Positions 10,095 through 25,314 of a DNA stretch of 64,000 bases are shown here, in pieces. The stretch comes from a virus, in the IMG/VR virus record IMGVR_UViG_3300008111_000018, positions 1-64,000 of that record; one strand, written 5' to 3'. The notes under the pieces were generated by a model. It did no database searches and was not told the DNA's origin. It worked only from the letters and a program-made list of their open reading frames with translations. The translations under genes and the position numbers were made by a program. Position 1 is the first letter of the stretch. Each line of letters starts with the position of its first letter.

Positions 10095-10123
10095 TTGGGC
10101 CCCTGAGAGTGTCCTAGTAATGT
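10095..10123 (+). promoter_or_regulatory. 29-bp GGGCCC element, copy 1
   Basis: TTGGGC, 17-bp spacer, TAATGT; the spacer contains CCCTGAGAGTGTCC. It precedes ATG 10140 by 16 nt. The promoter interpretation rests on the invariant 17-bp spacing across 14 copies. Confidence 0.65.
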
Positions 10124-10139
10124 AAGCAACAACTCTCAA

Positions 10140-10553
10140 ATGAGCACCCGAGCACGAATCGGTATTGAACTTAAGAATGGTTCTATCCTCTCTGTGTATC
10201 ACCACTGGGACGGTTATGAGTCCTGGTTGGGTCGTATTCTCAAGACTCACTACAATACCAGACAACTTGCTGCCGAACTGATTGACGGTGGTGATATGTC
10301 TTGTGCTTGGACTGATGAGCGTTGGAATGATAGTGGTGTGAAGGGTTCTTATGGTCCCAACTATTATTCCTATCGCGGTGAAGATTCTCCCCCTCGTCTT
10401 GATGCTGACCTGTGTGAGTATTTGCTGCCTGATGGTGCAGAAGAGTATCACTATCTCTTCACAAATGGTGAGTGGGTGTGCTATAGTATGAACGCCTTTG
10501 AAGAGAAACTCCCTGAAGTTGTTGAAATCCCCTCTGCTGCTCTTCACGTTTGA
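10140..10553 (+). CDS. Conserved phage hypothetical protein
   Basis: A 137-aa protein beginning STRARIGIELKNGSILSVYH, then HHWDGYESWLGRIL and a Tyr/Gly-rich centre. The RIGIEL...SVYHHWDGYP-type start is a conserved pattern in cyanophage genomes, function unknown. Placed directly after element copy 1, with no Shine-Dalgarno sequence and an A/C-rich leader. Confidence 0.7.
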   Translation: MSTRARIGIELKNGSILSVYHHWDGYESWLGRILKTHYNTRQLAAELIDGGDMSCAWTDERWNDSGVKGSYGPNYYSYRGEDSPPRLDADLCEYLLPDGAEEYHYLFTNGEWVCYSMNAFEEKLPEVVEIPSAALHV

Positions 10554-10556
10554 CCT

Positions 10557-10748
10557 ATGAAAACTTCTACTACTCTTGCTGCTGCCTTTGTTGTTATTGT
10601 CCTTGCTACTGCTGGACTTCTCTTTGAAGCGTGGTTGCTTGGACTCATTCTGTCTTGGTTCAATGTATCTTTGACCTTCTGGCAGAACTTTGCTATCATT
10701 GCTCTTGCTAATTTGATTTTTAAAAATACTGGAGTTTCTTCTAAATGA
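10557..10748 (+). CDS. Small two-helix membrane protein
   Basis: A 63-aa protein dominated by two hydrophobic helices (AAAFVVIVLATAGLLFEAWL and LTFWQNFAIIALANLIF). It overlaps the following membrane gene by ATGA, starting a run of five small membrane-associated or helical genes. Confidence 0.65.
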   Translation: MKTSTTLAAAFVVIVLATAGLLFEAWLLGLILSWFNVSLTFWQNFAIIALANLIFKNTGVSSK

Positions 10749-11164
10749 ACAAACAAAGCGGATTTATTGACCCTCCTGCTGTTCTTTTTATTGCTGGTGT
10801 GTTCTTAGTTGGTGGTCTCATCTTTATTGGTGGTCCCCAATATAATGTGTGGCAACAATCTCTTGCTGGTAAAGCAGAACTACAAAAGGCAGAATATACC
10901 CGACAGGTAGCAGTTCTGGAAGCACAAGCAAAGAAAGATTCGGCACAACAACTCGCTGATGCTGAAATTATCCGTGCTCAAGGTGTCGCAAAAGCAAACT
11001 CCATTATTGGGGATAGTTTGAAAGGTAATCCTGCTTATCTTCAGTATCTTTGGATTACTCAAGGTGAAGAGAACACCAGTCGAACTGTTTATATGGTTCC
11101 CAGTAATGGTGGCGCTCCTGTTCCTACTTTTGACATTCAACAAGCACCTGCTGTTAAAAAATGA
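10745..11164 (+). CDS. SPFH/prohibitin-like membrane protein
   Basis: A 139-aa protein with a transmembrane helix at 12-30 (PAVLFIAGVFLVGGLIFIGG) and a long helix with the Ala/Glu/Lys-rich stretch and EIIRAQGVAKANSIIGDSL, ending LQYLWI. This matches the C-terminal helical part of band-7/SPFH proteins, which scaffold membrane complexes and regulate membrane proteases. It lacks the full SPFH domain, so it is a short phage version. Overlaps its neighbours by ATGA. Confidence 0.65.
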   Translation: MNKQSGFIDPPAVLFIAGVFLVGGLIFIGGPQYNVWQQSLAGKAELQKAEYTRQVAVLEAQAKKDSAQQLADAEIIRAQGVAKANSIIGDSLKGNPAYLQYLWITQGEENTSRTVYMVPSNGGAPVPTFDIQQAPAVKK

Positions 11165-11334
11165 ACCGCAAGTACGTCGTCGCTGGATTGATTGGTTTTG
11201 CAGTCATTCTTGGTTGGAATGTCTTTCTAATCCAGCGTGATGAAAAACTATTCAAAGCATACTATAAAGAGACTGCTAAGCAAGAATATTGTAAGCAACA
11301 AGCAGGATGGCATCCAGATTGTAACGTAGAATGA
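11161..11334 (+). CDS. Small membrane-anchored protein
   Basis: A 57-aa protein: transmembrane helix at 5-24 (YVVAGLIGFAVILGWNVFLI), then a charged tail with two Cys (EYCKQQ, HPDCNVE). ATGA overlaps on both sides. Function unknown. Confidence 0.6.
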   Translation: MNRKYVVAGLIGFAVILGWNVFLIQRDEKLFKAYYKETAKQEYCKQQAGWHPDCNVE

Positions 11335-11456
11335 GTATTGGACTTGGTATAGCAATCTATGCAGCACTGGTTGCATTTGTATCGTCGATTATGATATATT
11401 ACTATAAGGTAATGTATCCTACTGAAGAAGCACAACTTAAGGAGAAATCCAAATGA
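11331..11456 (+). CDS. Very small membrane protein
   Basis: A 41-aa protein with one transmembrane helix (LGIAIYAALVAFVSSIMIYY) and a charged tail. It overlaps both neighbours by 4 nt. Size and coupling indicate a real gene in the membrane cluster. Confidence 0.55.
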   Translation: MSIGLGIAIYAALVAFVSSIMIYYYKVMYPTEEAQLKEKSK

Positions 11457-11590
11457 TTCCTAAACGACTCCGCGACCTTATTAAACAAGCAGAAATGGAC
11501 AAAGTAGCAGAAGAGTTCTGGAAAGAAGTTGAGATTGAAGCAGCAAAACTTGAGGTAACCGTTGACTACTATCTCGCGGAGTTTTATTGA
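11453..11590 (+). CDS. Small soluble helical protein
   Basis: A 45-aa amphipathic, charged protein (LRDLIKQAEMDKVAEEFW). It overlaps the previous gene by ATGA and the next by one base (TGATG). Function unknown. Confidence 0.55.
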   Translation: MIPKRLRDLIKQAEMDKVAEEFWKEVEIEAAKLEVTVDYYLAEFY

Positions 11591-11682
11591 TGACTTTTAT
11601 TCTTGGTATGGGACTTGGTATCCTTTTGACTATTGGAACTTCACTTATTGTCGCTGCAGATGTTGACAACGACGACAACTAA
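11590..11682 (+). CDS. Mini membrane peptide
   Basis: A 30-aa peptide: a hydrophobic helix (ILGMGLGILLTIGTSLIVAA) followed by an acidic tail (DVDNDDN). It is the last member of the coupled membrane gene run. Short, but the coupling and clear helix support it. Confidence 0.5.
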   Translation: MTFILGMGLGILLTIGTSLIVAADVDNDDN

Positions 11683-11714
11683 TCCTAAACTTAAGAGGTA
11701 ATTTACACAAACAA

Positions 11715-11954
11715 ATGGCACAAAAGTTTCTTTACATTCTTGACTACTTCGTACCAGTTTGGCAATCGGAGTACGGTGGTTTGCTTAATGTTATTGCAGA
11801 AAATGACGATGAATGTTTTGATATTGTTGTAGAATGGGATAACGAATGTTGGACAGAACATTATAGTAAACTGCGCGAGAATGTGATTAAGGCACCACGA
11901 TTCGCTCTCGTAGAAAATGAACAATCTCGAATGGTGGAGGCATTTACAACCTGA
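11715..11954 (+). CDS. Small conserved phage hypothetical protein
   Basis: A 79-aa protein (AQKFLYILDYFVPVWQSEYG, then an acidic DECFDIVVEWDNECW). It follows a short A-rich leader containing AAGAGG. The stop overlaps the next start (TGATG). Function unknown. Confidence 0.65.
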   Translation: MAQKFLYILDYFVPVWQSEYGGLLNVIAENDDECFDIVVEWDNECWTEHYSKLRENVIKAPRFALVENEQSRMVEAFTT

Positions 11955-12121
11955 TGACTCACCACGTTGCTCACACTAATAAAATGGTGTTTGATTTGAA
12001 GACACAGTATCAAGAACGTATTGAACAACTGCAAAATAAAATTGTAGAACAAGAACACGAAATCTCACAACTGCAGAAGCAAATTGAGTATATGTCGCGA
12101 GACAAGTTCTATGATTGTTGA
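11954..12121 (+). CDS. Small coiled-coil protein
   Basis: A 55-aa protein with a continuous heptad-like helix (QERIEQLQNKIVEQEHEISQ). Coupled on both sides. Function unknown. Confidence 0.55.
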   Translation: MTHHVAHTNKMVFDLKTQYQERIEQLQNKIVEQEHEISQLQKQIEYMSRDKFYDC

Positions 12122-12404
12122 ACTTCCAACATCTTTCTTTCATTCTCCACCAAACGGATACTATTATGAGTGTGAAGACTTCAAGCGAAATGTGGTTAGT
12201 ATTTGGTTATGCAACACTTACAAGTTTGTCTATAATGGCGGTGTTCCAACTAGGACTATTCACTCCTTCTACAACACCAAGACCAGAGAATACTTCGCCC
12301 CCATCAATAGTAAAACCATCGGTGCTTGTGTAAATATCAAGGAAACGCGAAACTATACCGCGATGCCAATTAAACAATCTCCACTAGATGCGTTCTTTGT
12401 ATGA
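12111..12404 (+). CDS. Hypothetical protein
   Basis: A 97-aa protein from ATG 12111 (an upstream in-frame start at 12084 would overlap more). It is beta-rich and aromatic: FFHSPPNGYYYECEDFKRN, SIWLCNTYKFVYNGG. It overlaps the next gene by ATGA. No family recognised. Confidence 0.55.
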   Translation: MIVELPTSFFHSPPNGYYYECEDFKRNVVSIWLCNTYKFVYNGGVPTRTIHSFYNTKTREYFAPINSKTIGACVNIKETRNYTAMPIKQSPLDAFFV

Positions 12405-12670
12405 CCTATGAACCACAAGTCAATGATTATGTTGTGTGGAATAATGGAAAAGATGTAGAAGGTTGGGTGTACTTCAAGTGTGATGAATATATCACGATTG
12501 AGCGCAGTGTTCGTCCAAAAGATGAAGTCAATCTTGTATGCTGCCCTATTCACAGAAATGAAAGATTACTTGTGATTTGTTATAATAACCAGTGGGAACA
12601 ACTTGAATACATTCAATCGCGCACATCAATCTATGAAGAAGAGCAAAACCTTTTGGCGGTTGCTAGCTAA
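12401..12670 (+). CDS. Hypothetical protein, SH3-like barrel appearance
   Basis: An 89-aa, strand-rich protein (NDYVVWNNGKDVEGWVYFK, EYITIERSVRPK, NLVCCPIHRNERLLVICY). The alternating strand layout suggests a small beta-barrel, by inference only. The following gene starts inside it in another frame. Confidence 0.55.
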   Translation: MTYEPQVNDYVVWNNGKDVEGWVYFKCDEYITIERSVRPKDEVNLVCCPIHRNERLLVICYNNQWEQLEYIQSRTSIYEEEQNLLAVAS

Positions 12671-12899
12671 ATCACTAGGAGAAAAGGCAAGTAAATGTGA
12701 TAAGGAGGCGGATAAGGTAGCACTTATTCGCCTTGTGATGTTTCTGTCTATTTTTATTACTAACTGCTTTATTGTAGCAAATGCTGTGAGGCATTGGAAT
12801 GATAAAACAACAGTGCAGGTTGTGATTGATGGTTCTATGTTGCCTGATTACCAAACACCACCCCCCAGACCACTTAACAAACCACTTGAGTTTGAATAA
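12633..12899 (+). CDS. Small membrane protein
   Basis: An 88-aa protein from ATG 12633. A basic N-terminus precedes one transmembrane helix (LIRLVMFLSIFITNCFIVAN); the tail is Pro-rich. It overlaps the preceding gene by 38 nt in another frame. Function unknown. Confidence 0.55.
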   Translation: MKKSKTFWRLLAKSLGEKASKCDKEADKVALIRLVMFLSIFITNCFIVANAVRHWNDKTTVQVVIDGSMLPDYQTPPPRPLNKPLEFE

Positions 12900-12900
12900 T

Positions 12901-12908
12901 ACTAAATA
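12901..12908 (+). promoter_or_regulatory. Late-promoter-like ACTAAATA
   Basis: ACTAAATA is 21 nt upstream of ATG 12930. The spacing and the TAAATA core match the clearer NATAAATA sites. It would give late expression to the virion-type gene pair at 12930-13752 within an otherwise early-type region. Confidence 0.45.
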
Positions 12909-12929
12909 CCTAAAAAAGTATTTGTAACA

Positions 12930-13364
12930 ATGGACTCCCAAGAACTTCGAAATCTTCAAGAAGCATATAACCAAGTTCATCAAGTTGAAGAAAATAATGA
13001 TTTGTTTGACCACATTCTTGAATATCTGGTTGCAGAAGGATATGCTGACACAAATGAAGCAGCAATTGCTATTATGGCAAATATGAGTGAAGAGTGGAGA
13101 GATAGTATTGTTGAGTCGCCAAGATCTGTGGTTGGATCTACACCATCAGATGTTGTTAGAGATAGATTGGATGATAGAAGAGCATATCGTTCAAGAGTAA
13201 CAGATGCTATGGCACAAGGAACGAGTCCAGTTGGATTGAGAAGGAGAGAACTTGCTCAACAAAGAGAAAAAGAATTTAATACGTATAGAAAGAAGCAGGA
13301 CCAAGACCCTTACTACAAAATAAAAACATTTAAAGATATTCCTGGAACATTCCCTAAAAAATGA
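12930..13364 (+). CDS. Late-type protein, possible prohead/internal component
   Basis: A 144-aa protein. Residues 4-60 (LRNLQEAYNQVHQ, then FDHILEYLVAEGYADTNEAA, IAIMANMSEEWRDSIVE) form a helical domain that I associate with prohead-related or scaffold-like cyanophage proteins. The rest is Arg-rich and probably disordered. LQE|A near the N-terminus fits the (L/I)-x-E cleavage rule of T4 prohead proteases, and the gene has a late-promoter-like site. Suggested role: capsid-internal or core-associated protein; unproven. Confidence 0.5.
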   Translation: MDSQELRNLQEAYNQVHQVEENNDLFDHILEYLVAEGYADTNEAAIAIMANMSEEWRDSIVESPRSVVGSTPSDVVRDRLDDRRAYRSRVTDAMAQGTSPVGLRRRELAQQREKEFNTYRKKQDQDPYYKIKTFKDIPGTFPKK

Positions 13365-13371
13365 GTAATCT

Positions 13372-13752
13372 ATGAAAACCTTTAAACAGTTTATAGAACA
13401 AACGCAAAAACCATCTCTTGTCCAGGCATTTTATTCGCTTGGAAAAGATCCTGGTGTTCCTGATAATCGTCAACCAAGGTTCAATCCTGGATTTAAGACT
13501 ATAGATAAGGGTTCATATAAAGAACGCATGAATATGCCTTTAAAAAAGATAAGAGAGGCTGTTGGTGATCCAATCAGTCCTAATAGTGTGTTTAAGTTGA
13601 GTGATCCTGTTCATCAGAAAAACCTTAAATCTGCAGCAACTCCAGCTGGTCCTTCTCCAATGAAGCCAACAGCACCAAAACCGAAACATCAGAGTAATAC
13701 TGATAGATTTGTGAAGAGAATGGTTGGAAGTACGATGCTATCTCCTCTTTGA
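13372..13752 (+). CDS. Basic protein with MKTFKQF N-terminus, putative internal head protein
   Basis: A 126-aa protein starting MKTFKQFIEQ, similar to the capsid-targeting sequence of T4 internal proteins (MKTYQEF type). The rest is Pro/Lys/Ser-rich and likely disordered, with net positive charge. It follows the 12930 gene by 7 nt, so it shares its late-promoter-like site. A DNA-binding protein packaged in the head is a reasonable guess, but no (L/I)-x-E cleavage site follows the motif directly. Confidence 0.5.
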   Translation: MKTFKQFIEQTQKPSLVQAFYSLGKDPGVPDNRQPRFNPGFKTIDKGSYKERMNMPLKKIREAVGDPISPNSVFKLSDPVHQKNLKSAATPAGPSPMKPTAPKPKHQSNTDRFVKRMVGSTMLSPL

Positions 13753-13758
13753 TTTTAA

Positions 13759-13787
13759 TTGGGCCCCTGGGATTGTCTCTATAGTGT
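13759..13787 (+). promoter_or_regulatory. 29-bp GGGCCC element, copy 2
   Basis: TTGGGC, 17 bp including CCCTGGGATTGTCTC, TAGTGT. It lies between the 13372 gene and ATG 13803 (15 nt leader). It has two substitutions in the spacer relative to the majority sequence. Confidence 0.65.
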
Positions 13788-13802
13788 AATCACCCAAGCA
13801 TT

Positions 13803-13937
13803 ATGGACTGGTTCGACGACAATCAAATTGAGGAACTTGAAAATTTTGATTTTATTGAAGAGGATCTCTCCGAATTGATTGAAGAGAAAAACAACTTTAA
13901 TATGAATGAGTATCTTAACTCTAACATTGACTACTGA
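13803..13937 (+). CDS. Very acidic small protein
   Basis: A 44-aa protein with about a third Asp/Glu (DWFDDNQIEELENFDFIEED). Strongly acidic small phage proteins often act as DNA mimics or inhibitors of host DNA-binding proteins; that is speculation here. It is the only gene after element copy 2. Confidence 0.6.
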   Translation: MDWFDDNQIEELENFDFIEEDLSELIEEKNNFNMNEYLNSNIDY

Positions 13938-13997
13938 CAGATTTTAAACTGTCCACCAAATATCCCATACTGACCCTTCATTCTTTATTATACTCAA

Positions 13998-14198
13998 ATG
14001 ACTGAACACATCCCTAACGTGCTTCCCCACATCCAAGAACTGAAAGATACTTGGAGGCGGCAAGATTTCACGTTCACTAAGCAACAACAAGAAGAATATG
14101 ATTTGCTTCTTGCTACTCGCCGCGAACGTGTGAAGCAATTCTATGCAGAAGGACGTGTATTCAAAGGTTCATATAAAGCAAAGGAAGTGGAGTTCTAA
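13998..14198 (+). CDS. Small conserved phage protein
   Basis: A 66-aa protein (TEHIPNVLPHIQELKDTWRR, helical, basic end VFKGSYKAKEVEF). A TATACT hexamer lies about 8 nt upstream without a clear -35. The sequence pattern looks familiar from T4-like cyanophages; function unknown. Confidence 0.6.
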   Translation: MTEHIPNVLPHIQELKDTWRRQDFTFTKQQQEEYDLLLATRRERVKQFYAEGRVFKGSYKAKEVEF

Positions 14199-14201
14199 AT
14201 A
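14194..14201 (+). promoter_or_regulatory. Late-promoter-like TCTAAATA
   Basis: TCTAAATA is 24 nt upstream of ATG 14226, overlapping the previous stop. Spacing and TAAATA core match the other late sites here; it serves a gene whose N-terminus resembles T4 packaged proteins. Confidence 0.45.
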
Positions 14202-14225
14202 CTAAAAAGTAGTGTTTAGATAGCA

Positions 14226-14852
14226 ATGAAAACCTTTCAGGAGTTTATGTCTATTTGCGAAGCAACTGGTGACACCTATGATGCAGAGTTTCGCTCTGGT
14301 GCTCAAGTCATTAAGACTGGAGAAGGTGGAAGAACTGGAAGACTTCGCAGAAAGACAACTCCTGAGATTCGTAGAACAAAGAGAGTTGGTGGTGGAAAGA
14401 CTGCACCTGTAGTTCAGAAACCACGCAAAGATATTGGCAAGAAGCGTGAGTCTACGATTGAAGCACCAAAGCAAGAACGTGGGTCCGCAAGAGAAGCACA
14501 ACTAGCAGCTGCAAAGGAAGAGAGAAGAAAAGCTGCACAGGCAAGAATTGCTGCGAAAAAGGCAGGAGCAAAACCAGAAGCAGCAAAACCAAAAGAGAAA
14601 GAATTAAAAGCAAAAGCAACTGAACTGCTGAGAAAGAAAGCAGCACCTAAATCATCGGCAGCACCCAAAGATTCTAGATTCTCAAGCTCAAGAAAACCTG
14701 AAGAGCACATGATTAAAGGCAAATATACCAAAGCAGAAAAGAAACAAATGGTAAGAGCAGGTAAGCAAAAACTGCGCGATTTGGTTCTCAAAGCGACAGG
14801 TAAGAAGAAGGAAAGTGAATTGAAGCACAAGTACACTGGTCCTGATACTTGA
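14226..14852 (+). CDS. Putative packaged internal head protein (basic, MKTFQEF start)
   Basis: A 208-aa protein starting MKTFQEFMSICEA. In T4, internal head proteins carry an N-terminal capsid-targeting sequence beginning MKTYQEF and are cut after (L/I)-x-E by the prohead protease; here ICE|A fits that rule. The remaining 195 residues are extremely Lys/Arg/Ala-rich and low complexity, as expected for a DNA-associated protein packed with the genome and injected. It has a late-promoter-like site. Function on injection is unknown. Confidence 0.6.
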   Translation: MKTFQEFMSICEATGDTYDAEFRSGAQVIKTGEGGRTGRLRRKTTPEIRRTKRVGGGKTAPVVQKPRKDIGKKRESTIEAPKQERGSAREAQLAAAKEERRKAAQARIAAKKAGAKPEAAKPKEKELKAKATELLRKKAAPKSSAAPKDSRFSSSRKPEEHMIKGKYTKAEKKQMVRAGKQKLRDLVLKATGKKKESELKHKYTGPDT

Positions 14853-14853
14853 A

Positions 14854-14882
14854 TCGGGCCCCTGAGATTGTCCTTGTAATAT
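14854..14882 (+). promoter_or_regulatory. 29-bp GGGCCC element, copy 3
   Basis: TCGGGC, 17 bp with CCCTGAGATTGTCC, TAATAT. Begins right after the stop of the 14226 gene; the leader to ATG 14906 is 23 nt and A/C-rich with no Shine-Dalgarno sequence near the start. Confidence 0.65.
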
Positions 14883-14905
14883 AAGGACAACACTCAAACG
14901 ACACT

Positions 14906-15061
14906 ATGCTCTGGCAAGACCGCAACGGTAACTGGTTCAGCACCAAATCTACCCTCGATATTCAAATCGAACGGGCAATGATTGAAGCAAACGCTAACAA
15001 AGTCTGGGAAGAAAAAGAACGTTCTGGTGATTGGTTGTTTGATGAAATGTTTGGTGGTTGA
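14906..15061 (+). CDS. Small hypothetical protein
   Basis: A 51-aa protein (MLWQDRNGNWFSTKSTLDIQ, then a helix and GDWLFDEMFGG). It is the sole gene between element copy 3 and the helicase promoter. Function unknown. Confidence 0.6.
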   Translation: MLWQDRNGNWFSTKSTLDIQIERAMIEANANKVWEEKERSGDWLFDEMFGG

Positions 15062-15073
15062 TTAACTGCCATC

Positions 15074-18047: not shown

Positions 18048-18048
18048 A

Positions 18049-18077
18049 TTGGGCCCTTGGGATTGTCCTAGTAGTAT
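18049..18077 (+). promoter_or_regulatory. 29-bp GGGCCC element, copy 4
   Basis: TTGGGC, 17 bp with CCTTGGGATTGTCC, TAGTAT. The ATG at 18076 overlaps the -10-like hexamer; another in-frame ATG is 15 nt further on at 18091. Confidence 0.65.
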
Positions 18078-18993
18078 GAGTAAGCAACCAATGCAAAACA
18101 AGCACCTAGAGCATCCTGAAGACGAAATCCTAACGGGTAATCTATCTGTTCTTGACTGGTTTTCTGAGGTAGATTCTACCATCAGCACCAAGATGGATGG
18201 TGCTCCTGCTATTGTTTGGGGCACTAATCCTGAGAATGGTAAGTTCTTTGTCTGCACCAAAGCAGCATTTAACAAGAAAAAGATTCGCCTTTGCTATACC
18301 GAAGACGACATCTTTACGCACTTTGGTGGTCAACCTCGCGTAACGCAAATTCTTATCTTCTGCCTGGATTTTCTTCCTCGCACTAAGAACGTGTATCAGG
18401 GGGATTGGATTGGTTTTGGTAGTGGATTGGATACATTCAAACCCAATACAATTACCTATCGCTTCCCTGAGATTGTTCGTCAGGAGATTATCATTGCCCC
18501 TCACACATATTACACTGGTGAGCGTCTGCCTGAGATGGTAGCTCATCCTATCGTGGGTAAGTTTGCAAGCACTAAAAAATGCTTGTTTGTGCAACCTAGT
18601 GTGTCTATTTGTCCCTTCCGTGATGATATTGAAGACTTCTGCAAGTTTGCCAAGCAAATGAGCACACTTTGTGAGTTCGTGAATGTAAAGCAAGCAGCAG
18701 AACTCAAAAAAATCATCAATTCCTACGTTCGTGAGGGTAAGGAGGTGGATGAGCATGAAATTGCAGAAAATTATGATGTTGACATCAACCTGATGCGGCT
18801 TTGGAAGTTGGTTGAGTCTATCAAGATGGATTTGTTCTGCTTCATTGAGTCTGACACTGACATTACTTGTGAGATTGATGGTGAACTCAGCGATCACGAA
18901 GGATTCGTAATGCACAACAAGTTTGGGTCTTACAAGATTGTGAATCGTGAAGAGTTTAGCAGGTTGAACTTCACTCTTGCAAAGAGTTGGTAA
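18076..18993 (+). CDS. DUF6267-like protein with ligase-type nucleotidyltransferase motifs
   Basis: A 305-aa protein (291 aa if it starts at 18091). The start HLEHPEDEILTGN and body resemble the phage DUF6267 family. I also see covalent-nucleotidyltransferase motifs: KMDGAP at 39-44 (motif I, the Lys that accepts AMP in DNA/RNA ligases), EGFVM at 275-279 (motif IV) and YKIV at 286-289 (motif V). Together these suggest an ATP-dependent nucleic-acid ligase or a related adenylyl-transferring enzyme. Start choice: ATG 18076 lies in the promoter-like element, so 18091 may be the true start. Confidence 0.6.
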   Translation: MSKQPMQNKHLEHPEDEILTGNLSVLDWFSEVDSTISTKMDGAPAIVWGTNPENGKFFVCTKAAFNKKKIRLCYTEDDIFTHFGGQPRVTQILIFCLDFLPRTKNVYQGDWIGFGSGLDTFKPNTITYRFPEIVRQEIIIAPHTYYTGERLPEMVAHPIVGKFASTKKCLFVQPSVSICPFRDDIEDFCKFAKQMSTLCEFVNVKQAAELKKIINSYVREGKEVDEHEIAENYDVDINLMRLWKLVESIKMDLFCFIESDTDITCEIDGELSDHEGFVMHNKFGSYKIVNREEFSRLNFTLAKSW

Positions 18994-19022
18994 CTGGGCC
19001 CTTGAGATTGTCCCTATAGTAT
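18994..19022 (+). promoter_or_regulatory. 29-bp GGGCCC element, copy 5
   Basis: CTGGGC, 17 bp with CCTTGAGATTGTCC, TAGTAT. Overlaps ATG 19021; an in-frame ATG at 19036 follows. The element starts 2 nt after the preceding gene's stop (TAA at 18991-18993). Confidence 0.65.
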
Positions 19023-19452
19023 GAGCACTCCTACGATGCAAGCACAAGCACAACAAACTATCGCAGAAAGCGTCCTTAAGAATACTCTGCTGCTGATTGA
19101 AGCACTGAAAGACAATTATCGTCAGTACGCTATTCGTGGGCATCAGCGTTCTGCGGAGCGTGGTGAAAGTGTAGAGTATCATCTGCGCTGTATTGATGAA
19201 CTCAAGAGTGGATTTTGTCCTATTGAGTATGAGATTGAAACTGGTAAAAAGTATCATAAAGTGATTATGATTACCAGTGGTATGTCTCGCTCTGTTCATT
19301 GCTTCATTGATAAGAACACTGGTGAAATGTATAAGTCTGCCTCCTGGAAATCTCCTGCGAAAGGTGTTCGTTATGATTTGCGATTGATAAAGGATCGTGA
19401 ATATCTGCTGGAAAATGCTGATTGGTCTGGTGGTTATCTGTACGCAAAATGA
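19021..19452 (+). CDS. Conserved phage hypothetical protein
   Basis: A 143-aa protein (138 aa from 19036). Helical N-terminal half (TIAESVLKNTLLLIEALKDN), then a strand-rich half (YHKVIMITSGMSRSVHCFID, GEMYKSASWKSPAKGVRYDL). The C-terminal part has the look of a domain recurrent in cyanophage proteins; function unknown. Overlaps the next gene by ATGA. Confidence 0.6.
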   Translation: MSTPTMQAQAQQTIAESVLKNTLLLIEALKDNYRQYAIRGHQRSAERGESVEYHLRCIDELKSGFCPIEYEIETGKKYHKVIMITSGMSRSVHCFIDKNTGEMYKSASWKSPAKGVRYDLRLIKDREYLLENADWSGGYLYAK

Positions 19453-19882: not shown

Positions 19883-19888
19883 TTGAAA

Positions 19889-19917
19889 CTGGGCCCTTGA
19901 GATTGTCCCTATAGTAT
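19889..19917 (+). promoter_or_regulatory. 29-bp GGGCCC element, copy 6
   Basis: CTGGGC, 17 bp with CCTTGAGATTGTCC, TAGTAT; preceded by GATTGAAA. ATG 19916 overlaps the hexamer, and the next in-frame ATG is far downstream at 19985. Confidence 0.65.
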
Positions 19918-20155
19918 GAGCAACACCATCGTTTCCGAAGTCTACTCCTACCACACAAATTGGAAGGAAGGTAAAGTCAATCAAATGTGGATTGAGCAAA
20001 TCACTGATAAAGAGTGCGACAATCTCTATGTCGCTGTTGCATACAATCCTAGCAACGGTTCCAAGATGGAGATGAGCAATCCTCGCACATCTTACCATGA
20101 AACTCTAAACTGGGTTCGCGGTTGGTGTGGCACTTTCTGTATCCTTCCTGCTTGA
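19916..20155 (+). CDS. Small hypothetical protein
   Basis: A 79-aa, Trp-rich protein (YSYHTNWKEGKVNQMWIEQI, YHETLNWVRGWCGTFC). The start codon overlaps the TAGTAT of copy 6, so translation must rely on a transcript from upstream or on a start not visible to me. Function unknown. Confidence 0.55.
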   Translation: MSNTIVSEVYSYHTNWKEGKVNQMWIEQITDKECDNLYVAVAYNPSNGSKMEMSNPRTSYHETLNWVRGWCGTFCILPA

Positions 20156-20324: not shown

Positions 20325-20600
20325 ATGTTCCGCACACTTTCCCAACTCCGTGATTCAATCAACCAACTGATTGAGCAACAAGGTGAAGACGCAGGTTGTG
20401 CTGCGTTTATATACACTCAAGAGGATGTCTTTGAGTTTGATGCTAATGATAAGGAAGTGCGTTTCTCTAAACAACTCACTGAAGATGTGCTCTGTGATGT
20501 AGGAGGTTCTTCCTACGTTTATGAACAGATTGGTGAGATGATTGATGACTACATTTCTATGCGTAAGGGTATGTCAATCTACCAAGAATCGGTGAACTGA
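20325..20600 (+). CDS. Small hypothetical protein
   Basis: A 91-aa acidic protein (FRTLSQLRDSINQLIEQQGE, then ACAAFIYTQEDVFEFDANDK). Starts after TGATT like its neighbours. Function unknown. Confidence 0.6.
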   Translation: MFRTLSQLRDSINQLIEQQGEDAGCAAFIYTQEDVFEFDANDKEVRFSKQLTEDVLCDVGGSSYVYEQIGEMIDDYISMRKGMSIYQESVN

Positions 20601-20602
20601 TT

Positions 20603-20797
20603 ATGACTGACGGTTACACTTTCAATCGCGTTGAGTTCACTGCTAATGAGGAAACTTGCATCTTAAAGTTTCTCAATCAAGCACGAGAATGTGGATACCC
20701 AAGTGGTAACGAAGAATGGTATCCTGTGATTGATTCCATCTTCCAAAAGTTTTTCAATTCTAACATCAAAGAAGCACAGGAGTTTCAAACACTATGA
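20603..20797 (+). CDS. Small hypothetical protein
   Basis: A 64-aa protein (RVEFTANEETCILKFLNQAR), mostly helical. It starts after TGATT and overlaps the next gene by ATGA. Function unknown. Confidence 0.55.
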   Translation: MTDGYTFNRVEFTANEETCILKFLNQARECGYPSGNEEWYPVIDSIFQKFFNSNIKEAQEFQTL

Positions 20798-20937
20798 AAT
20801 ACGAAGTTCAACTCTACGTTGGTGGTAAAGTCTTCAAAGAGGAAGTGTATGCTAACTCCCCAAAAGATGCCCGCGAAACAGCAACAGCACGAAATCCTAC
20901 AGCAAAGGTGATTGGTGTCAATGCAACGTTTAAGTAA
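20794..20937 (+). CDS. Small conserved phage protein
   Basis: A 47-aa protein with two strands and a helix (MKYEVQLYVGGKVFKEEVYA, then DARETATARNPTAKV). The pattern is like a short protein I associate with cyanophages. Function unknown. Confidence 0.6.
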   Translation: MKYEVQLYVGGKVFKEEVYANSPKDARETATARNPTAKVIGVNATFK

Positions 20938-20966
20938 TTGGGCCCTTGAGATTGTCCCTATAGTAT
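20938..20966 (+). promoter_or_regulatory. 29-bp GGGCCC element, copy 7
   Basis: TTGGGC, 17 bp with CCTTGAGATTGTCC, TAGTAT. It begins on the base after the previous stop. ATG 20965 overlaps the hexamer and no close in-frame ATG follows. Confidence 0.65.
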
Positions 20967-21138
20967 GAACACTAACTACAACGCCAATCCTTACAAGCAA
21001 CAGGTTCTCGATAAGTGTCGTGACCTGCCTAAAGCTTCTGCTTCAAAGCGTACCTTTCCTTGCACGATTGGTTATCGTACCTTTGAGACTGAAGCTGAGT
21101 ATCAGGAAGCACTTGCTGACTTTCTGAACGGTTATTGA
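20965..21138 (+). CDS. Small conserved phage protein
   Basis: A 57-aa protein (NPYKQQVLDKCRDLPKASAS, then CTIGYRTFETEAEYQEALAD). Single gene between copies 7 and 8. Function unknown; the start overlaps the element. Confidence 0.55.
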   Translation: MNTNYNANPYKQQVLDKCRDLPKASASKRTFPCTIGYRTFETEAEYQEALADFLNGY

Positions 21139-21140
21139 AA

Positions 21141-21169
21141 CTGGGCCCCTGAGATTGTCCCTGTAGTAT
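21141..21169 (+). promoter_or_regulatory. 29-bp GGGCCC element, copy 8
   Basis: CTGGGC, 17 bp with CCCTGAGATTGTCC, TAGTAT; ATG 21168 overlaps. It starts 3 nt after the previous stop. With copy 7 it frames a single 57-aa gene. Confidence 0.65.
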
Positions 21170-21341
21170 GACACAAACCACTTTCACAGTTCGATTCGAT
21201 TCCAATGCACTCAATTCTCCTGAGTATGTTGGACCTTTCTACAGTGAAGATGATGCCCAAGAGTATTGCGACGACCGCAACGGTTCTTTAGCACTTTCGG
21301 GTATTCCTTCCTGGGTTGCCTGTTACTCTGTTGTTGATTGA
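21168..21341 (+). CDS. Small hypothetical protein
   Basis: A 57-aa protein (FTVRFDSNALNSPEYVGPFY, EDDAQEYCDDRNG) that looks like a one-strand, one-helix domain. Followed by a TGATT-ATG junction. Function unknown. Confidence 0.55.
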   Translation: MTQTTFTVRFDSNALNSPEYVGPFYSEDDAQEYCDDRNGSLALSGIPSWVACYSVVD

Positions 21342-21343
21342 TT

Positions 21344-21565
21344 ATGACTTTTACTGACGCACTGATTGCATCTGGTTATGTATTTGATGATGAAAATTAT
21401 GATGGTTGTTATGTAAAACAAGATGATGACGGTTTCATTCACCTTTATCAGGAAAATGTGGATGATGAGACTGACACTCTCTGGAATTATGTCAAGATGA
21501 GTGATGATTTTGATGTGCTCCATGAGGTTACTTTCAATCCTGATGTGAACACTGTTATTCAATGA
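21344..21565 (+). CDS. Small acidic hypothetical protein
   Basis: A 73-aa protein, strongly acidic (YVFDDENYDGCYVKQDDDGF, DDETDTLWNYVKMSDDFD). A TTG at 21338 is in frame, but ATG 21344 follows the recurring TGATT junction. Function unknown. Confidence 0.55.
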   Translation: MTFTDALIASGYVFDDENYDGCYVKQDDDGFIHLYQENVDDETDTLWNYVKMSDDFDVLHEVTFNPDVNTVIQ

Positions 21566-21801
21566 TTTCCCTTCCTAATCCCACAAACAAAATGACTGAA
21601 ATGACTCCTGATTTTAGCACTGTTGTTGAGAACTATGCTCAGATGATTTTGGATGGTATGGATTACAAATCTCTCGAACAGTTTGCACTTGATACTCTCA
21701 TTGATAACCTCACGAAACAGTTTGAAACTGTAGATGAGTTGATTGAAGAAATCCGCGAAATCTATGATGATGAAGTTGCAAACGATCTTGTTGGGCAATA
21801 G
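21562..21801 (+). CDS. Small acidic helical protein
   Basis: A 79-aa protein from 21562 (ATGA overlap), or 69 aa from ATG 21592. The core (MTPDFSTVVENYAQMILDGM, LEQFALDTLIDNL, VDELIEEIREIYDDE) is helical. Function unknown. Confidence 0.6.
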   Translation: MISLPNPTNKMTEMTPDFSTVVENYAQMILDGMDYKSLEQFALDTLIDNLTKQFETVDELIEEIREIYDDEVANDLVGQ

Positions 21802-21804
21802 AAA

Positions 21805-21833
21805 CTGGGCCCCTGAGATTGTCCTTGTAGTAT
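21805..21833 (+). promoter_or_regulatory. 29-bp GGGCCC element, copy 9
   Basis: CTGGGC, 17 bp with CCCTGAGATTGTCC, TAGTAT; preceded by ATAGAAA as in copies 10 and 12. ATG 21849 is 15 nt further, leader A/C-rich. Confidence 0.7.
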
Positions 21834-21848
21834 AAGAGCACAACCACG

Positions 21849-22439
21849 ATGCCAAAACTGACAACGAACGAAGTATTTGCGAAACTGAATGTTACTGACT
21901 TCAGTGCATTTGATAAACCAGGAAAGAACAAAGGTGCTCGTGGGCAACTGTTAGAAATTGCACTGGGAGTTCCTAACTCTTCTGACCTGCAAGATCTGGA
22001 AGATGGGGAAATTAAGACTTTCACAGTTGGAGAGTCGATTGCTGCCACACAGTTGAAGCATTGTCTATCTGAAATCATCGAAGATTCTGTCTCGTTTGAT
22101 GATAGCAAAGTCGGGCAGAAACTAAAGCAAACTCTGTATGTTGGATTCACTCGTGAGAACGATTATATGGGTTCCGCTATTCTGAATGAGGAAACTCATG
22201 CGGAGCACTATCAAGAATTGCGTGAGGATTATGAGTTCATTTGTAACAGCATTCGCACACTTTTCGATGCTGGTAAACAACTAGGAACCATCACTGGACC
22301 TAACGGATTGCTGCAGATTCGCACGAAAGCATCTAAAACCAACGGCCGCTATGTACCTCTGACATTTGCAGGTGTGACGCTTAAGGATAAGGGAATGGCG
22401 TTTTATTTGTGTGGATCTTTTGGTCGCAATCTGTTCTGA
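21849..22439 (+). CDS. MutH/Sau3AI-like GATC endonuclease (putative)
   Basis: A 196-aa protein. Residues 28-36 (KGARGQLLE) match the KGxxGQLLE signature of MutH and Sau3AI, and residues 46-57 (DLQDLEDGEIKT) give the following Asp...Glu-x-Lys catalytic pattern (Glu54, Lys56), with length close to MutH (about 230 aa). These enzymes nick or cut DNA at GATC, usually when it is unmethylated. Alone under element copy 9, in the same region as the Dam methylase (17049), so the pair could mark and destroy DNA by GATC methylation state. No MutS or MutL is visible here. Distinguishing a MutH from a Sau3AI-type enzyme needs a structure-based comparison. Confidence 0.6.
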   Translation: MPKLTTNEVFAKLNVTDFSAFDKPGKNKGARGQLLEIALGVPNSSDLQDLEDGEIKTFTVGESIAATQLKHCLSEIIEDSVSFDDSKVGQKLKQTLYVGFTRENDYMGSAILNEETHAEHYQELREDYEFICNSIRTLFDAGKQLGTITGPNGLLQIRTKASKTNGRYVPLTFAGVTLKDKGMAFYLCGSFGRNLF

Positions 22440-22445
22440 TAGAAA

Positions 22446-22474
22446 CTGGGCCCCTGAGATTGTCCTAGTAGTAT
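22446..22474 (+). promoter_or_regulatory. 29-bp GGGCCC element, copy 10
   Basis: CTGGGC, 17 bp with CCCTGAGATTGTCC, TAGTAT; preceded by ATAGAAA. ATG 22493 is 18 nt beyond. Confidence 0.7.
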
Positions 22475-22492
22475 AAGCACTGAGAAACCACA

Positions 22493-22690
22493 ATGAACTT
22501 CTACAAAGTAACTGAAATTGAGTTTGATTTTGACTACGAAGATCTCACTGAAGAAGAGAAAGATGAGATTGTAAATGATGCAAAGAATTGTCTGTGGGAT
22601 TCACCTGATGGTGAGGATTGTCTTGCAGATGTTATCACAAACAATACAGGATGGTGCATAAAATCACTTCGCTACGACGTAGTAAATTGA
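22493..22690 (+). CDS. Small acidic hypothetical protein
   Basis: A 65-aa protein with about 20 Asp/Glu (EIEFDFDYEDLTEEEKDEIV). Begins a four-gene overlapping run. Function unknown. Confidence 0.6.
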   Translation: MNFYKVTEIEFDFDYEDLTEEEKDEIVNDAKNCLWDSPDGEDCLADVITNNTGWCIKSLRYDVVN

Positions 22691-22797
22691 AGACAATTCT
22701 GTTAATCTTCATCGTTGCGAGTATTTTATCACCTGGAGTTCGCAACACTACTGCAAGCGCATTGCACACTGTAGCAGACATTATTTCGCCACAATGA
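22687..22797 (+). CDS. Mini membrane protein (TTG start)
   Basis: A 36-aa protein from TTG 22687, overlapping the previous stop (TTGA). A hydrophobic helix (TILLIFIVASILSPGVRN) looks like a signal anchor. An ATG at 22651 in the same frame would add 12 basic residues. Function unknown. Confidence 0.5.
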   Translation: MKTILLIFIVASILSPGVRNTTASALHTVADIISPQ

Positions 22798-22943
22798 TTG
22801 AACTTCTGATTGCATCAACCATTATCGGAGCGACTGAAATTGCACCGAATGTTTTACAAGTTCAGTATCTTACCCCAAACAATTCTATCGTCACTATTCT
22901 TGAAAATGTTGAAATCAAAGGAGGAGAAATTGACCATGATTGA
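22794..22943 (+). CDS. Small hypothetical protein
   Basis: A 49-aa protein (MIELLIASTIIGATEIAPNV, then strand-rich). Coupled by ATGA upstream and an 8-nt overlap downstream. Function unknown. Confidence 0.5.
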   Translation: MIELLIASTIIGATEIAPNVLQVQYLTPNNSIVTILENVEIKGGEIDHD

Positions 22944-23061: not shown

Positions 23062-23079
23062 ATCAAAAGTTGATAAAAA

Positions 23080-23108
23080 CTGGGCCCCTGAGATTGTCCC
23101 TATAGTAT
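23080..23108 (+). promoter_or_regulatory. 29-bp GGGCCC element, copy 11
   Basis: CTGGGC, 17 bp with CCCTGAGATTGTCC, TAGTAT. ATG 23107 overlaps; an in-frame ATG follows at 23128, the distance seen in copies with a free leader. Confidence 0.7.
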
Positions 23109-23307
23109 GAACACCAACGCTTTCCAAATGTCTAAAGTTTATGCTGTAATTGGTGGCATTGATTATGAAGGTGAAGACTTCAAATCTCTCCGCTTGTTTG
23201 ATTGCTTCTCCGCTGCAGATGCTTACCTGAAGCAGTTAGAATCTGAGTTCGATTATGTACTTCTCGAAACCCGTGAGGTATGTCTGGAGTCTGCAATCGC
23301 TGCCTGA
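23107..23307 (+). CDS. Small hypothetical protein
   Basis: A 66-aa protein, or 59 aa from ATG 23128, which I think more likely because the first ATG lies within the -10-like hexamer. The body is MSKVYAVIGGIDYEGEDFKS then a helix. Function unknown. Confidence 0.6.
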   Translation: MNTNAFQMSKVYAVIGGIDYEGEDFKSLRLFDCFSAADAYLKQLESEFDYVLLETREVCLESAIAA

Positions 23308-23313
23308 TAGAAA

Positions 23314-23342
23314 CTGGGCCCCTGAGATTGTCCCTGTAGTAT
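23314..23342 (+). promoter_or_regulatory. 29-bp GGGCCC element, copy 12
   Basis: CTGGGC, 17 bp with CCCTGAGATTGTCC, TAGTAT; preceded by GATAGAAA. ATG 23362 is 19 nt beyond, with an A/C-rich leader. Confidence 0.7.
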
Positions 23343-23361
23343 AACCACTGAACTTCCAACC

Positions 23362-23852: not shown

Positions 23853-23863
23853 CCTAACAAATA

Positions 23864-23892
23864 CTGGGCCCCTGAGATTGTCCTAGTAGTAT
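23864..23892 (+). promoter_or_regulatory. 29-bp GGGCCC element, copy 13
   Basis: CTGGGC, 17 bp with CCCTGAGATTGTCC, TAGTAT. ATG 23891 overlaps, and an in-frame ATG follows at 23906. Confidence 0.7.
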
Positions 23893-24163
23893 GAGCACTT
23901 CCCAAATGTCTTTCCCTTATCTCCACATCGACAATAGCACTCTTGCTAATCACACTTCGATCTTTTTTAAGGTCAGTGCTGATACTCAAGATTCCTGGAT
24001 TAACAACATTTTCCATAACTCACGATATGGAATCTTCTGTCTTGCTGATGGCAAACTGGAACTGATTTCAAAAGGTTTGAATACAACCAAGTTCCGCAAG
24101 TGTAAGTGCAATGATGAGCCAACTGCACTGCAAAAGATTCAACAATGGATGGATAAGTTCTGA
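23891..24163 (+). CDS. Hypothetical protein
   Basis: A 90-aa protein, or 85 aa from ATG 23906. The beta-rich body (YLHIDNSTLANHTSIFFKVS, RYGIFCLADGKLELISKG) ends in a basic helix. The stop overlaps the next start (TGATG). Function unknown. Confidence 0.6.
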   Translation: MSTSQMSFPYLHIDNSTLANHTSIFFKVSADTQDSWINNIFHNSRYGIFCLADGKLELISKGLNTTKFRKCKCNDEPTALQKIQQWMDKF

Positions 24164-24699: not shown

Positions 24700-24709
24700 A
24701 TACACATAG

Positions 24710-24735
24710 AGAGGGGATCTAACCCCTCTTTTTTA
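24710..24735 (+). terminator. Strong rho-independent terminator
   Basis: AGAGGGG (24710-24716), 6-nt loop, CCCCTCT (24723-24729), followed by six T. Ends the region carrying copies 4-13 of the element. Confidence 0.9.
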
Positions 24736-24821
24736 ATGCCTAAAAACGTGATTTAGTGTCAAAAATGTATTAAAACGTTTAATAAAGCCTTTTTTAAATA
24801 TAGCTGAGTTTTCAACAGCCT

Positions 24822-24848
24822 TGTGGAAAAGCTTGTGGAATCTGTGGA
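24822..24848 (+). repeat. Three TGTGGAA iterations
   Basis: TGTGGAA occurs at 24822, 24834 and 24843 (TGTGGAAAA, TGTGGAATC, TGTGGAATA). The last is one base from TGTGGATAA, the complement of the DnaA-box TTATCCACA. Confidence 0.55.
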
Positions 24849-24855
24849 ATAAAGC

Positions 24856-24906
24856 CCTTTTAAATCCTTCTAGACCCCGTAACTTATGCCTTTTAAATCC
24901 TTCTAG
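24856..24906 (+). repeat. 18-bp direct repeat pair
   Basis: CCTTTTAAATCCTTCTAG occurs exactly at 24856-24873 and 24889-24906, 33 bp apart, in the non-coding segment. Confidence 0.85.
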
Positions 24907-25029
24907 GTCTTGTGATCTTTGCGTGCAAGCTATCACACACTCTCCAAAATGTCAAGCACCCCGACGTTTCCAAATCCCCACAATCACCCTCATAAAATAT
25001 CAACACCCCTCATAAATACACCCAAGGTC

Positions 25030-25058
25030 TTGACACATTGCCCCCAGCATCTTATAGT
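25030..25058 (+). promoter_or_regulatory. Near-consensus early promoter TTGACA-N17-TATAGT
   Basis: TTGACA at 25030-25035, 17-bp spacer, TATAGT at 25053-25058; 29 nt upstream of ATG 25088, which has a GGAG ribosome site. The best sigma70-type promoter of the window and probably an immediate-early one. Confidence 0.85.
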
Positions 25059-25087
25059 AGCCACAGTAACACTCACGGAGCACACTT

Positions 25088-25261
25088 ATGTCGGTTGCGT
25101 ATCGCCAAGCCCAGAAGCAGCGTTATAGGGTCACTCTAGAGCTTGAGGTCTTCGAAGACTTCGACCCGCATCAACTTGACTGGGATAAAGTATTCAAATT
25201 GGAACCAGCTGAGCGTGTGTCAGCTTATGTGGAAGACCTCAGCCGTCCTGATAAGTGGTAA
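25088..25261 (+). CDS. Conserved early cyanophage protein
   Basis: A 57-aa protein (MSVAYRQAQKQRYRVTLELE, then VFEDFDPHQLDWDKVFKLEP). The pattern resembles a short early protein shared by T4-like cyanophages. It is expressed from the strongest promoter seen here, fitting a host-takeover role; the target is unknown. Confidence 0.7.
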   Translation: MSVAYRQAQKQRYRVTLELEVFEDFDPHQLDWDKVFKLEPAERVSAYVEDLSRPDKW

Positions 25262-25285
25262 CTCATACCGACTGAGTGAGTATTA

Positions 25286-25314
25286 TTGGGCCCCTGAGAT
25301 TGTCCCCATAGTGT
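25286..25314 (+). promoter_or_regulatory. 29-bp GGGCCC element, copy 14
   Basis: TTGGGC, 17 bp with CCCTGAGATTGTCC, TAGTGT. ATG 25333 is 18 nt beyond. This is the last copy in the window. Confidence 0.65.

What the first reader, a model, noticed from the sequence alone, without database searches (positions are those of the whole stretch)
10095..25314. Fourteen copies of one 29-bp promoter-like element define a phage regulon
Copies begin at 10095, 13759, 14854, 18049, 18994, 19889, 20938, 21141, 21805, 22446, 23080, 23314, 23864 and 25286. Each is (T/C)(T/C)GGGC, exactly 17 bp, then TA(G/A)T(A/G)T, always on the plus strand and just upstream of a gene. The 17-bp spacer, normally free to vary in a promoter, is nearly invariant (GGGCCCYTGAGATTGTCC overlapping it). 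I saw no copy in 1-10 kb or in the late region. Invariant spacing fits sigma70-type -35/-10 geometry, but the -35 is poor, so an activator or a phage sigma-modifying protein binding the conserved spacer is a reasonable model. A translational-control RNA motif is the alternative.
Basis: partly seen in the sequence, partly recalled or inferred. Interest (0 to 1): 0.9.

Follow-up and report, generated by a model that had tools for sequence, protein, structure and literature searches.

The report
Phage-specific tags on gene-start elements
A T4-like virus of cyanobacteria puts the same short DNA element at the start of fourteen neighbouring genes, and related viruses carry the same element with a different but equally uniform front part, as if each virus used its own password to switch on a shared, swappable set of genes.

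Summary
In detail: 14 copies, exact geometry, 0 expected by chance, and no fifteenth in the 121,902-b record, a T4-like cyanophage. Relatives show that the "29-bp element" has two parts. A core, AAAGTGTCC-N3-TARTRT-RA, recurs in 782 distinct copies in 190 loci. Upstream lies a tag of about 12 bp over the -35 position, the same in nearly all copies of one phage and different in most others (1.1 of 11 variable positions differ within a locus, 6.3 between). Beyond the closest relatives tags hardly follow gene phylogeny. Unrelated genes are often joined at the element, yet tags also differ where both neighbouring genes match. In 475 of 782 copies the core carries an ATG, in an open frame in 95%. 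Best explanation: a composite promoter and start element for one gene block, whose tag is read by an unidentified phage-specific DNA-binding protein. It fails a consensus sigma-70 scan; MotA and AsiA are not detected; an RNA hairpin is possible in only 302 of 782 copies. Closest known kinds: Syn9's early element (recalled; paper not held), T4 PeSLs, mycobacteriophage SAS/ESAS and stoperators.

The parts
10094..10129 (+). element 1 (tag 10094-10105, core 10106-10129); next ATG 10140 opens a 137-aa ORF (phrog_1987, unknown)
13758..13793 (+). element 2; next ATG 13803 (44 aa)
14853..14888 (+). element 3; next ATG 14906 (51 aa), followed by a UvsW-like helicase ORF 15151-16398
18048..18083 (+). 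element 4; ATG inside the element at 18076 (305 aa), second in-frame ATG 18091 (phrog_455, DUF6267)
18993..19028 (+). element 5; ATG inside at 19021 (143 aa), second in-frame ATG 19036 (phrog_818, DUF7717)
19888..19923 (+). element 6; ATG inside at 19916 (79 aa), no other start listed close by
20937..20972 (+). element 7; ATG inside at 20965 (57 aa), no other start listed close by
21140..21175 (+). element 8; ATG inside at 21168 (57 aa), no other in-frame start listed close by
21804..21839 (+). element 9; next ATG 21849 (196 aa, phrog_15364)
22445..22480 (+). element 10; next ATG 22493 (65 aa)
23079..23114 (+). element 11; ATG inside at 23107 (66 aa), second in-frame ATG 23128
23313..23348 (+). 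element 12; next ATG 23362 (105 aa)
23863..23898 (+). element 13; ATG inside at 23891 (90 aa), second in-frame ATG 23906
25285..25320 (+). element 14; next ATG 25333 (85 aa)

Best explanation
Each copy is a composite promoter and start element for one gene, or a short run of genes, in the block between the tail-fibre genes and gp25. The downstream core (AAAGTGTCC-N3-TARTRT-RA, in this phage mostly AGATTGTCC-N3-TARTRT-RA) is the common part. Its TARTRT is most likely where RNA polymerase opens the DNA. The upstream tag (here ACTGGGCCCYTG, over the -35 position) is bound by a phage-specific DNA-binding protein that takes the place of the sigma -35 contact, so that one protein switches on the whole block. 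When the protein's specificity changes, all tags of the genome change with it; genes that enter by recombination at the shared core come under the resident tag. Shown: the anatomy, the uniformity of the tag within phages and its change between phages, the one-block one-strand distribution, the module joints, and the embedded in-frame ATG. Inferred: that it is a promoter, that the tag is read by a protein, that this protein is phage-encoded, and that timing is early (at least before the T4-type late promoters). Not resolved: whether transcripts start about 7 nt after TARTRT, which would leave the embedded ATG to read-through transcripts, or at about the ATG itself, which would make half of the mRNAs leaderless.
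For: 14 of 14 copies with fixed geometry, none elsewhere in the record. The core recurs in 782 distinct copies in 190 loci, with T, A, T and T of TARTRT at 98-99.7%. In 67 loci that were fetched by the core alone (389 copies), tags differ at 1.12 of 11 positions within a locus and 6.31 of 11 between loci; shuffled locus labels give 6.11 (lowest of 200: 5.86). Positions downstream of the hexamer are no more alike within a phage than between phages (within/between mismatch ratio 0.9-1.1 from idx 16 on, where it could be computed, against 0.03-0.05 at the heart of the tag), so copying of whole elements does not explain it. Tags differ although both neighbouring genes match in 39 pairs of copies. 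Whole records hold the copies in one block on one strand: 12 in SynMITS9220M01 (36.3-50.0 kb), 12 in S-SM2 (42.7-58.5 kb). In the own record none of the 11 TATAAATA late-promoter octamers lies in 10-25.4 kb. Precedent that genome-wide uniform, phage-specific sites follow a phage-encoded DNA-binding protein: stoperators of cluster A mycobacteriophages (PMC6550527, passages).
Against: No transcript data. TAGTAT matches TATAAT at 4 of 6 and the -35 position at about 2 of 6; the conserved T at the fourth place of TARTRT is not what sigma-70 prefers; no copy passes the sigma-70 scan. The embedded ATG is in an open frame in 94.7% of 475 copies, and 149 of the 475 have no second ATG with an open frame nearby: if transcription started 7 nt after the hexamer, those genes could not be translated from their own element. 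No reader was found: no gene in the block covaries with the tag in a convincing way, no sigma-70 region 4, MotA or AsiA was detected. An early activator would have to be carried in the virion or made from another promoter, and neither is shown. Close relatives do tend to share tags (39 of 80 pairs at 90-100% identity).
Confidence: 0.55

Rival explanations
1. The element acts in RNA: a start-associated sequence that a phage or host factor recognises, or that is cut, to control translation.
For: It touches the start codon. The embedded ATG is in an open frame in 94.7% of 475 copies, against 39% (ATA, 107) and 48% (GTA, 169) for the same frame in other copies; with one copy per locus 93% against 45%. 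Stop triplets crowd before the tag (703 of 753 against 387 in control windows), as at coupled genes. Mycobacteriophage SAS are a precedent for start-adjacent repeats (PMC3203893, passages).
Against: The distance to the start codon takes two values classes (0, or 15 nt and more), not one. The only stem that I saw in the window copies (GGGC with GTCC) can form in 302 of 782 copies; several tag classes cannot form it at all. Rfam has no match in the window. RAGCAC is kept also in copies without the embedded ATG.
Confidence: 0.2
2. The tag is the operator of a phage-encoded repressor or terminator protein, as with mycobacteriophage stoperators, and the core is a promoter or joint that it silences.
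For: Many uniform, one-orientation, phage-specific sites are exactly what stoperators look like (PMC6550527, passages). A repressor does not have to be present at the first minute.
Against: T4-like cyanophages are lytic as known (established knowledge), so a lysogenic repressor is not expected. The tag keeps a fixed distance to TARTRT and covers the -35 place, which suits an activator at least as well.
Confidence: 0.12
3. An ordinary sigma-70 promoter that host RNA polymerase reads alone; the repeats are recent copies.
For: TARTRT keeps T, A and T at the three places that matter most in a -10 box, at -35-like spacing. An early review of cyanomyoviruses expects unmodified host polymerase at early genes (PMC2984593, passages).
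Against: The -35 place is the most phage-specific part. None of 14 copies is among the 32 sigma-70-like sites in the region, which itself are no more than expected (34.1). Recent copying would have made the downstream half uniform too, and it is not.
Confidence: 0.08
4. A recombination joint without regulatory function, kept alike by gene conversion.
For: Unrelated genes meet at the element: of 218 pairs of copies with different tags and matching downstream genes, 131 have no upstream similarity above the null.
Against: Conversion would not stop between tag and core, and the free positions of the core are not homogenised. Copies are confined to one block and one strand and placed at gene starts.
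Confidence: 0.05

Closest known systems
Early-gene regulatory element of cyanophage Syn9 (Doron et al. 2016, ISME J; paper not held; known to me from recall of its abstract only)
   Same: A repeated, non-T4 element said to control early genes of a T4-like cyanophage; Syn9 shows its own repeat in the matching block (five copies of TCGTGTATTCTATAAGAGTCAAAG or close to it).
   Different: The sequence differs: no true copy of our core in Syn9, Syn1 or P-SSM2. Whether the Syn9 repeat I saw is the published element could not be checked. Phage-specific tags on a shared core are not something I recall from that abstract.
PeSLs, promoter early stem loops of T4-like phages (Arbiol 2010, Comeau 2014; not held; described in passages of PMC4503421)
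   Same: Promoter-bearing intergenic elements of T4-like phages at which genes are shuffled.
   Different: No stem-loop next to any of the 14 copies; a phage-specific tag; an embedded start codon in half of the copies.
SAS and ESAS of cluster K mycobacteriophages (PMC3203893 and PMC12699233, passages)
   Same: A conserved sequence at start codons of non-structural genes, with an adjoining upstream part whose consensus differs between subclusters and is thought to be a protein-binding site.
   Different: SAS holds a Shine-Dalgarno core and stands 3-7 bp before the start; ESAS is a pair of inverted repeats with modest differences. Here the tag is not a repeat pair and changes almost completely, and the start codon may lie inside the element.
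Stoperators of cluster A mycobacteriophages (PMC6550527, passages)
   Same: 20-30 uniform, one-orientation sites per genome whose sequence is phage-specific and follows a phage-encoded DNA-binding protein.
   Different: Repressor sites of temperate phages, mostly away from promoters; here every copy in the window is at a gene start and keeps a fixed distance to TARTRT.
T4 middle promoters (MotA box plus -10 box)
   Same: A phage activator replaces the sigma -35 contact; this is what the best explanation works like.
   Different: MotA and AsiA are not detected in eight element-bearing records, while both ring in T4.

Membership tests
sigma-70 consensus promoter | -35 and -10 hexamers near TTGACA and TATAAT | tested here: not met
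   none of the 14 copies among the 32 sites of the scan; the -35 place differs from phage to phage
sigma-70 consensus promoter | T, A and T at the first, second and sixth place of the -10 box | tested here: met
   99.1, 98.1 and 99.4% of 782 copies
T4 middle promoter | phage encodes MotA and AsiA | tested here: not met
   0 of 8 element-bearing records and not Syn9; T4 control rings; six of the eight records are unnamed and may be fragments
T4-type late promoter | TATAAATA before the gene | tested here: not met
   none of 11 TATAAATA octamers lies in 10-25.4 kb
single-subunit phage RNA polymerase promoter | phage encodes a T7-like RNA polymerase | tested here: inconclusive
   PF00940 in 0 of 11 records, but no control genome rang
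PeSL | stem-loop terminator joined to an early promoter | tested here: not met
   no terminator-like site next to any copy
PeSL | joint between exchanged genes | tested here: met
   131 of 218 different-tag pairs and 36 of 113 same-tag pairs with matching downstream genes have no upstream similarity above the null
SAS of cluster K mycobacteriophages | GGGATAGGAGCCC with a Shine-Dalgarno core 3-7 bp before the start codon | tested here: not met
   sequence and spacing differ in all 14 copies; SAS features from passages
stoperator | bound by a phage repressor that stops transcription | not testable with these tools
   no protein known to bind the tag
Syn9 early element | published sequence and mapped transcript starts | not testable with these tools
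   paper not held

The most novel reading that the evidence does not exclude
T4-like cyanophages use a transcription password: a whole gene block is addressed by a tag that only the own phage's reader recognises, the tag being exchangeable as a set over evolution. The shared core lets relatives trade genes, which then obey the recipient's tag, while tags keep the block of one phage from being run by a co-infecting relative. Half of the genes may moreover be read from leaderless mRNAs that start inside the element.
Probability: 0.3. Interest if true: 0.88.

Novelty: new variant of a known kind. Interest (0 to 1): 0.7.

Why it matters
How T4-like cyanophages, among the commonest viruses of the ocean, start their programme without MotA, AsiA or Alt is an open question in the literature (PMC2984593, passages). 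A shared core with phage-specific tags turns it into a testable one: find the protein that reads the tag. It would give a natural set of orthogonal transcription signals in lytic phages, and a way to tell from sequence alone which uncultured phages share a regulator.

Tried and rejected
Plain motif search in annotated phages found only short matches; the core finds four records, for SynMITS9220M01, S-SM2 (twice) and a single-cell marine virus.

RNA hairpin GGGC/GTCC: possible in 302 of 782 copies, impossible for tag classes such as GGGG, CTCA, GGGA. Rejected as a conserved stem.

Tag reader by covariation: 41 window ORFs, of which 32 had at least 12 loci. Raw correlation with the tag was at most 0.30 except for the ORF at 16512 (0.55). 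That ORF is missing from 56 of 75 loci that hold both flanks and nearly the same in loci with other tags, so it was rejected, although its partial correlation is 0.54-0.71 with p 0.003 of 300 permutations. Small partial correlations with uncorrected p of 0.01 or less in at least one test were also seen for 12401, 14226 and 17868. The basic protein at 14226 (46-56 K+R in 168-202 aa in six relatives) is in 7 of 8 element-bearing records and in none of Syn9, Syn1 and P-SSM2, but looks disordered and has no family match; kept only as a lead. Two records that share a tag (G001, G004) are not each other's closest relatives for most genes (6 of 24 and 4 of 28) and no single gene stood out as reader.

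A first junction test without gaps (113 of 119 pairs with unrelated upstream) was biased by small length differences before the tag; one search replaced it.

The window's own copies count under near-identical loci such as L005.

Papers: Doron 2016, Comeau 2014 and Arbiol 2010 are not held.
Full report
Observation. Eleven carry the 18-mer GGGCCCYTGAGATTGTCC exactly. The window is the first 64,000 b of a virus record of 121,902 b, and a weight matrix of the 14 finds no further copy in it. An ORF of at least 40 aa ends 0-24 nt before each copy.

What the record is. Protein families include T4-type baseplate wedge proteins, a tail sheath stabilizer, head closure and terminase large subunit proteins, and a helicase that matches UvsW genes of Synechococcus phages. 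The phrog_455 protein behind element 4 has relatives in 467 phage records, nearly all of Synechococcus or Prochlorococcus phages or cyanophages. The block with the elements lies upstream of gp25, as in the annotated relatives SynMITS9220M01 and S-SM2. The fourteen genes behind the elements are mostly small and of unknown function.

Two parts. Relatives fetched first by the exact 18-mer (17 stretches), then by GGGCCCN7TGTCCN3TARTRT (119, capped), then by the downstream half alone (120, capped) gave 782 distinct copies above a score of 14 in 190 loci. In these, AAA (idx 0-2), TGT (4-6) and TARTRT (12-17) are nearly invariant, the fixed letters at 94-100%, and so is one C at idx -5. The rest of idx -12 to -1 is a tag. 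SynMITS9220M01 has TTACTCACCTCT, S-SM2 GGGGGGTCGCCT, the window ACTGGGCCCYTG; others are listed. The window's lineage is odd in one respect: its core mostly reads AGATTGTCC where most phages have AAAGTGTCC.

The tag belongs to the phage. In the 67 loci that were fetched first and have three or more copies (389 copies), tags differ at 1.12 of 11 positions within a locus (1114 pairs) and at 6.31 between loci (6633 sampled pairs); the first 18 core positions differ at 1.71 and 2.18. Shuffling the locus labels gives 6.11, lowest 5.86 in 200. Site by site, the within/between ratio of mismatch is 0.03-0.05 at idx -9 to -6, 0.13-0.27 at most other tag sites, 0.52 at idx -1, 0.6-1.1 at the variable sites between AAA and TARTRT, and 0.9-1.1 from idx 16 on. 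Whole elements are therefore not simply copies of each other; it is the tag that is held uniform. The 67 tags fall into 10 groups by single linkage at two differences.

Exceptions and phylogeny. Four of 67 loci have one copy with a foreign tag. Record G004 has 13 copies with one tag and two with another; G002 has one foreign copy. Among pairs of phrog_455 proteins, tags agree (at most 1 of 11 different) in 39 of 80 pairs at 90-100% identity, 35 of 222 at 80-90%, and 129 of 2289 at 50-60%. Close relatives thus share tags more often, but 19 of the 80 closest pairs differ at 5 or more positions. G001 and G004 share a tag but are each other's best relative for only 6 of 24 and 4 of 28 genes compared.

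Module joints. I compared 300 bp on both sides with gapped local alignment. Of 218 pairs of copies with different tags and matching downstream genes, 131 have no upstream similarity above the null and 39 have clear similarity. For same-tag pairs it is 36 and 53 of 113. So genes are joined at the element, more so between phages of different tag; and in 39 pairs the tag differs although both neighbours match. In one pair (L168 at 5600, L164 at 6677) both flanks are about 90% identical and the tags GGGGGGACATGC and CAGGGAGCTCTT. Pairs are not independent, so these are counts, not tests.

Where copies lie. In whole or long records the copies are on one strand in one block: 12 at 36.3-50.0 kb of 190 kb in SynMITS9220M01, 12 at 42.7-58.5 kb of 191 kb in S-SM2, 15 at 37.7-54.4 kb in G004, with a few isolated low scores elsewhere; Syn9, Syn1 and P-SSM2 give one or two low scores each and no true copy. 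In the own record the T4-type late octamer TATAAATA occurs 11 times on + and not at all on -, and not in 10-25.4 kb; of 31 other NATAAATA on +, one lies in that stretch. No exact AAAGTGTCCCTATAGTATRA occurs in the GTDB genome contigs.

The start codon. In 475 of 782 copies idx 16-18 is ATG, and its frame is open for at least 30 codons in 94.7%; for ATA (107) and GTA (169) the same frame is open in 39% and 48%. With one copy per locus the figures are 93% and 45%. In the 307 copies without that ATG the first ATG with an open frame of 22 codons lies at idx 31 or later in 274 (most often 33-34), at idx 18-30 in 13, and is not found in 20. Of the 475, 149 have no second such ATG. For phrog_455 genes, 72 copies have the ATG and 43 of these have no second in-frame ATG in the next 12 codons. 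Two readings remain. If transcripts start about 7 nt after TARTRT, the gap before idx 31 is the minimum leader and the embedded ATG serves transcripts from upstream. If they start at about the ATG, half of the genes have leaderless mRNAs and the others leaders of 15 nt or more. I lean to neither strongly; the many genes whose only start is the embedded ATG favour the second.

Mechanism. The tag lies where sigma would touch -35, at a fixed distance from TARTRT. No copy passes a sigma-70 scan, and the scan finds no more sites in the region than shuffles do (32, mean 34.1). MotA and AsiA are found in T4 but in none of eight element-bearing records. Sigma-70 region 4 is in none of 11 records, with controls ringing. 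A T7-like polymerase was not found either, but without a ringing control. A phage-specific DNA-binding protein that reads the tag is therefore the best explanation, and it works like MotA without being MotA. I did not find it.

RNA alternative. The stem GGGC/GTCC can form in 302 of 782 copies and in none of several tag classes; Rfam gives nothing in the window.

What is known. A review says cyanomyoviruses lack alt, modA, modB, motA and asiA homologues and that control of early and middle transcription is unclear (PMC2984593, passages). Sullivan 2010, which describes S-SM2, predicted promoters with BPROM and a T4 late octamer; in the passages I saw no such element is mentioned (PMC3037559). 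From memory, the abstract of Doron 2016 reports a novel regulatory element for early genes of Syn9; the paper is not held. Syn9 does have its own repeat in the block, and P-SSM2 another. I found no description of phage-specific tags on a shared core in my searches of the open library, which misses most subscription papers. Analogues are PeSLs (passages of PMC4503421), SAS/ESAS and stoperators.

Verdict. A real, well delimited feature; a new variant of known kinds (phage block promoters that also serve as gene joints), with an unusual property, the exchangeable tag, that deserves experiments.

Noticed in passing
window 14226-14852: A 208-aa protein very rich in K and R, beginning MKTFQEF, which resembles (from recall) the capsid-targeting leader of T4 internal proteins; relatives in 7 of 8 element-bearing records and none in Syn9, Syn1, P-SSM2.
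   Followed up: partly
window 16512-17867: A 176-aa protein without family match next to a D12-class adenine DNA methyltransferase; the 176-aa gene is present in 19 of 75 loci that hold both flanks, mostly with GGGCCC tags.
   Followed up: partly
L138 (Syn9), 14836-21543: Five copies of another repeat, about TCGTGTATTCTATAAGAGTCAAAG, before small genes in the block that matches ours.
   Followed up: partly
L140 (P-SSM2), 11387-22866: Seven copies of AACTGGCACA or close to it, about 30 nt before TATAATAAG-like sequences; another phage-specific repeat.
   Followed up: no
L141 (freshwater phage DSL-LC03), 9967-18006: Repeats of AATCTAGTT(C/G)A in the same kind of block.
   Followed up: no
G004 49298 and 51021; G002 179435: Copies with a foreign tag inside a phage that otherwise uses one tag; possible recent arrivals.
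   Followed up: partly
window 30815-43183: A 4122-aa ORF in the place of the baseplate wedge initiator; not analysed.
   Followed up: no
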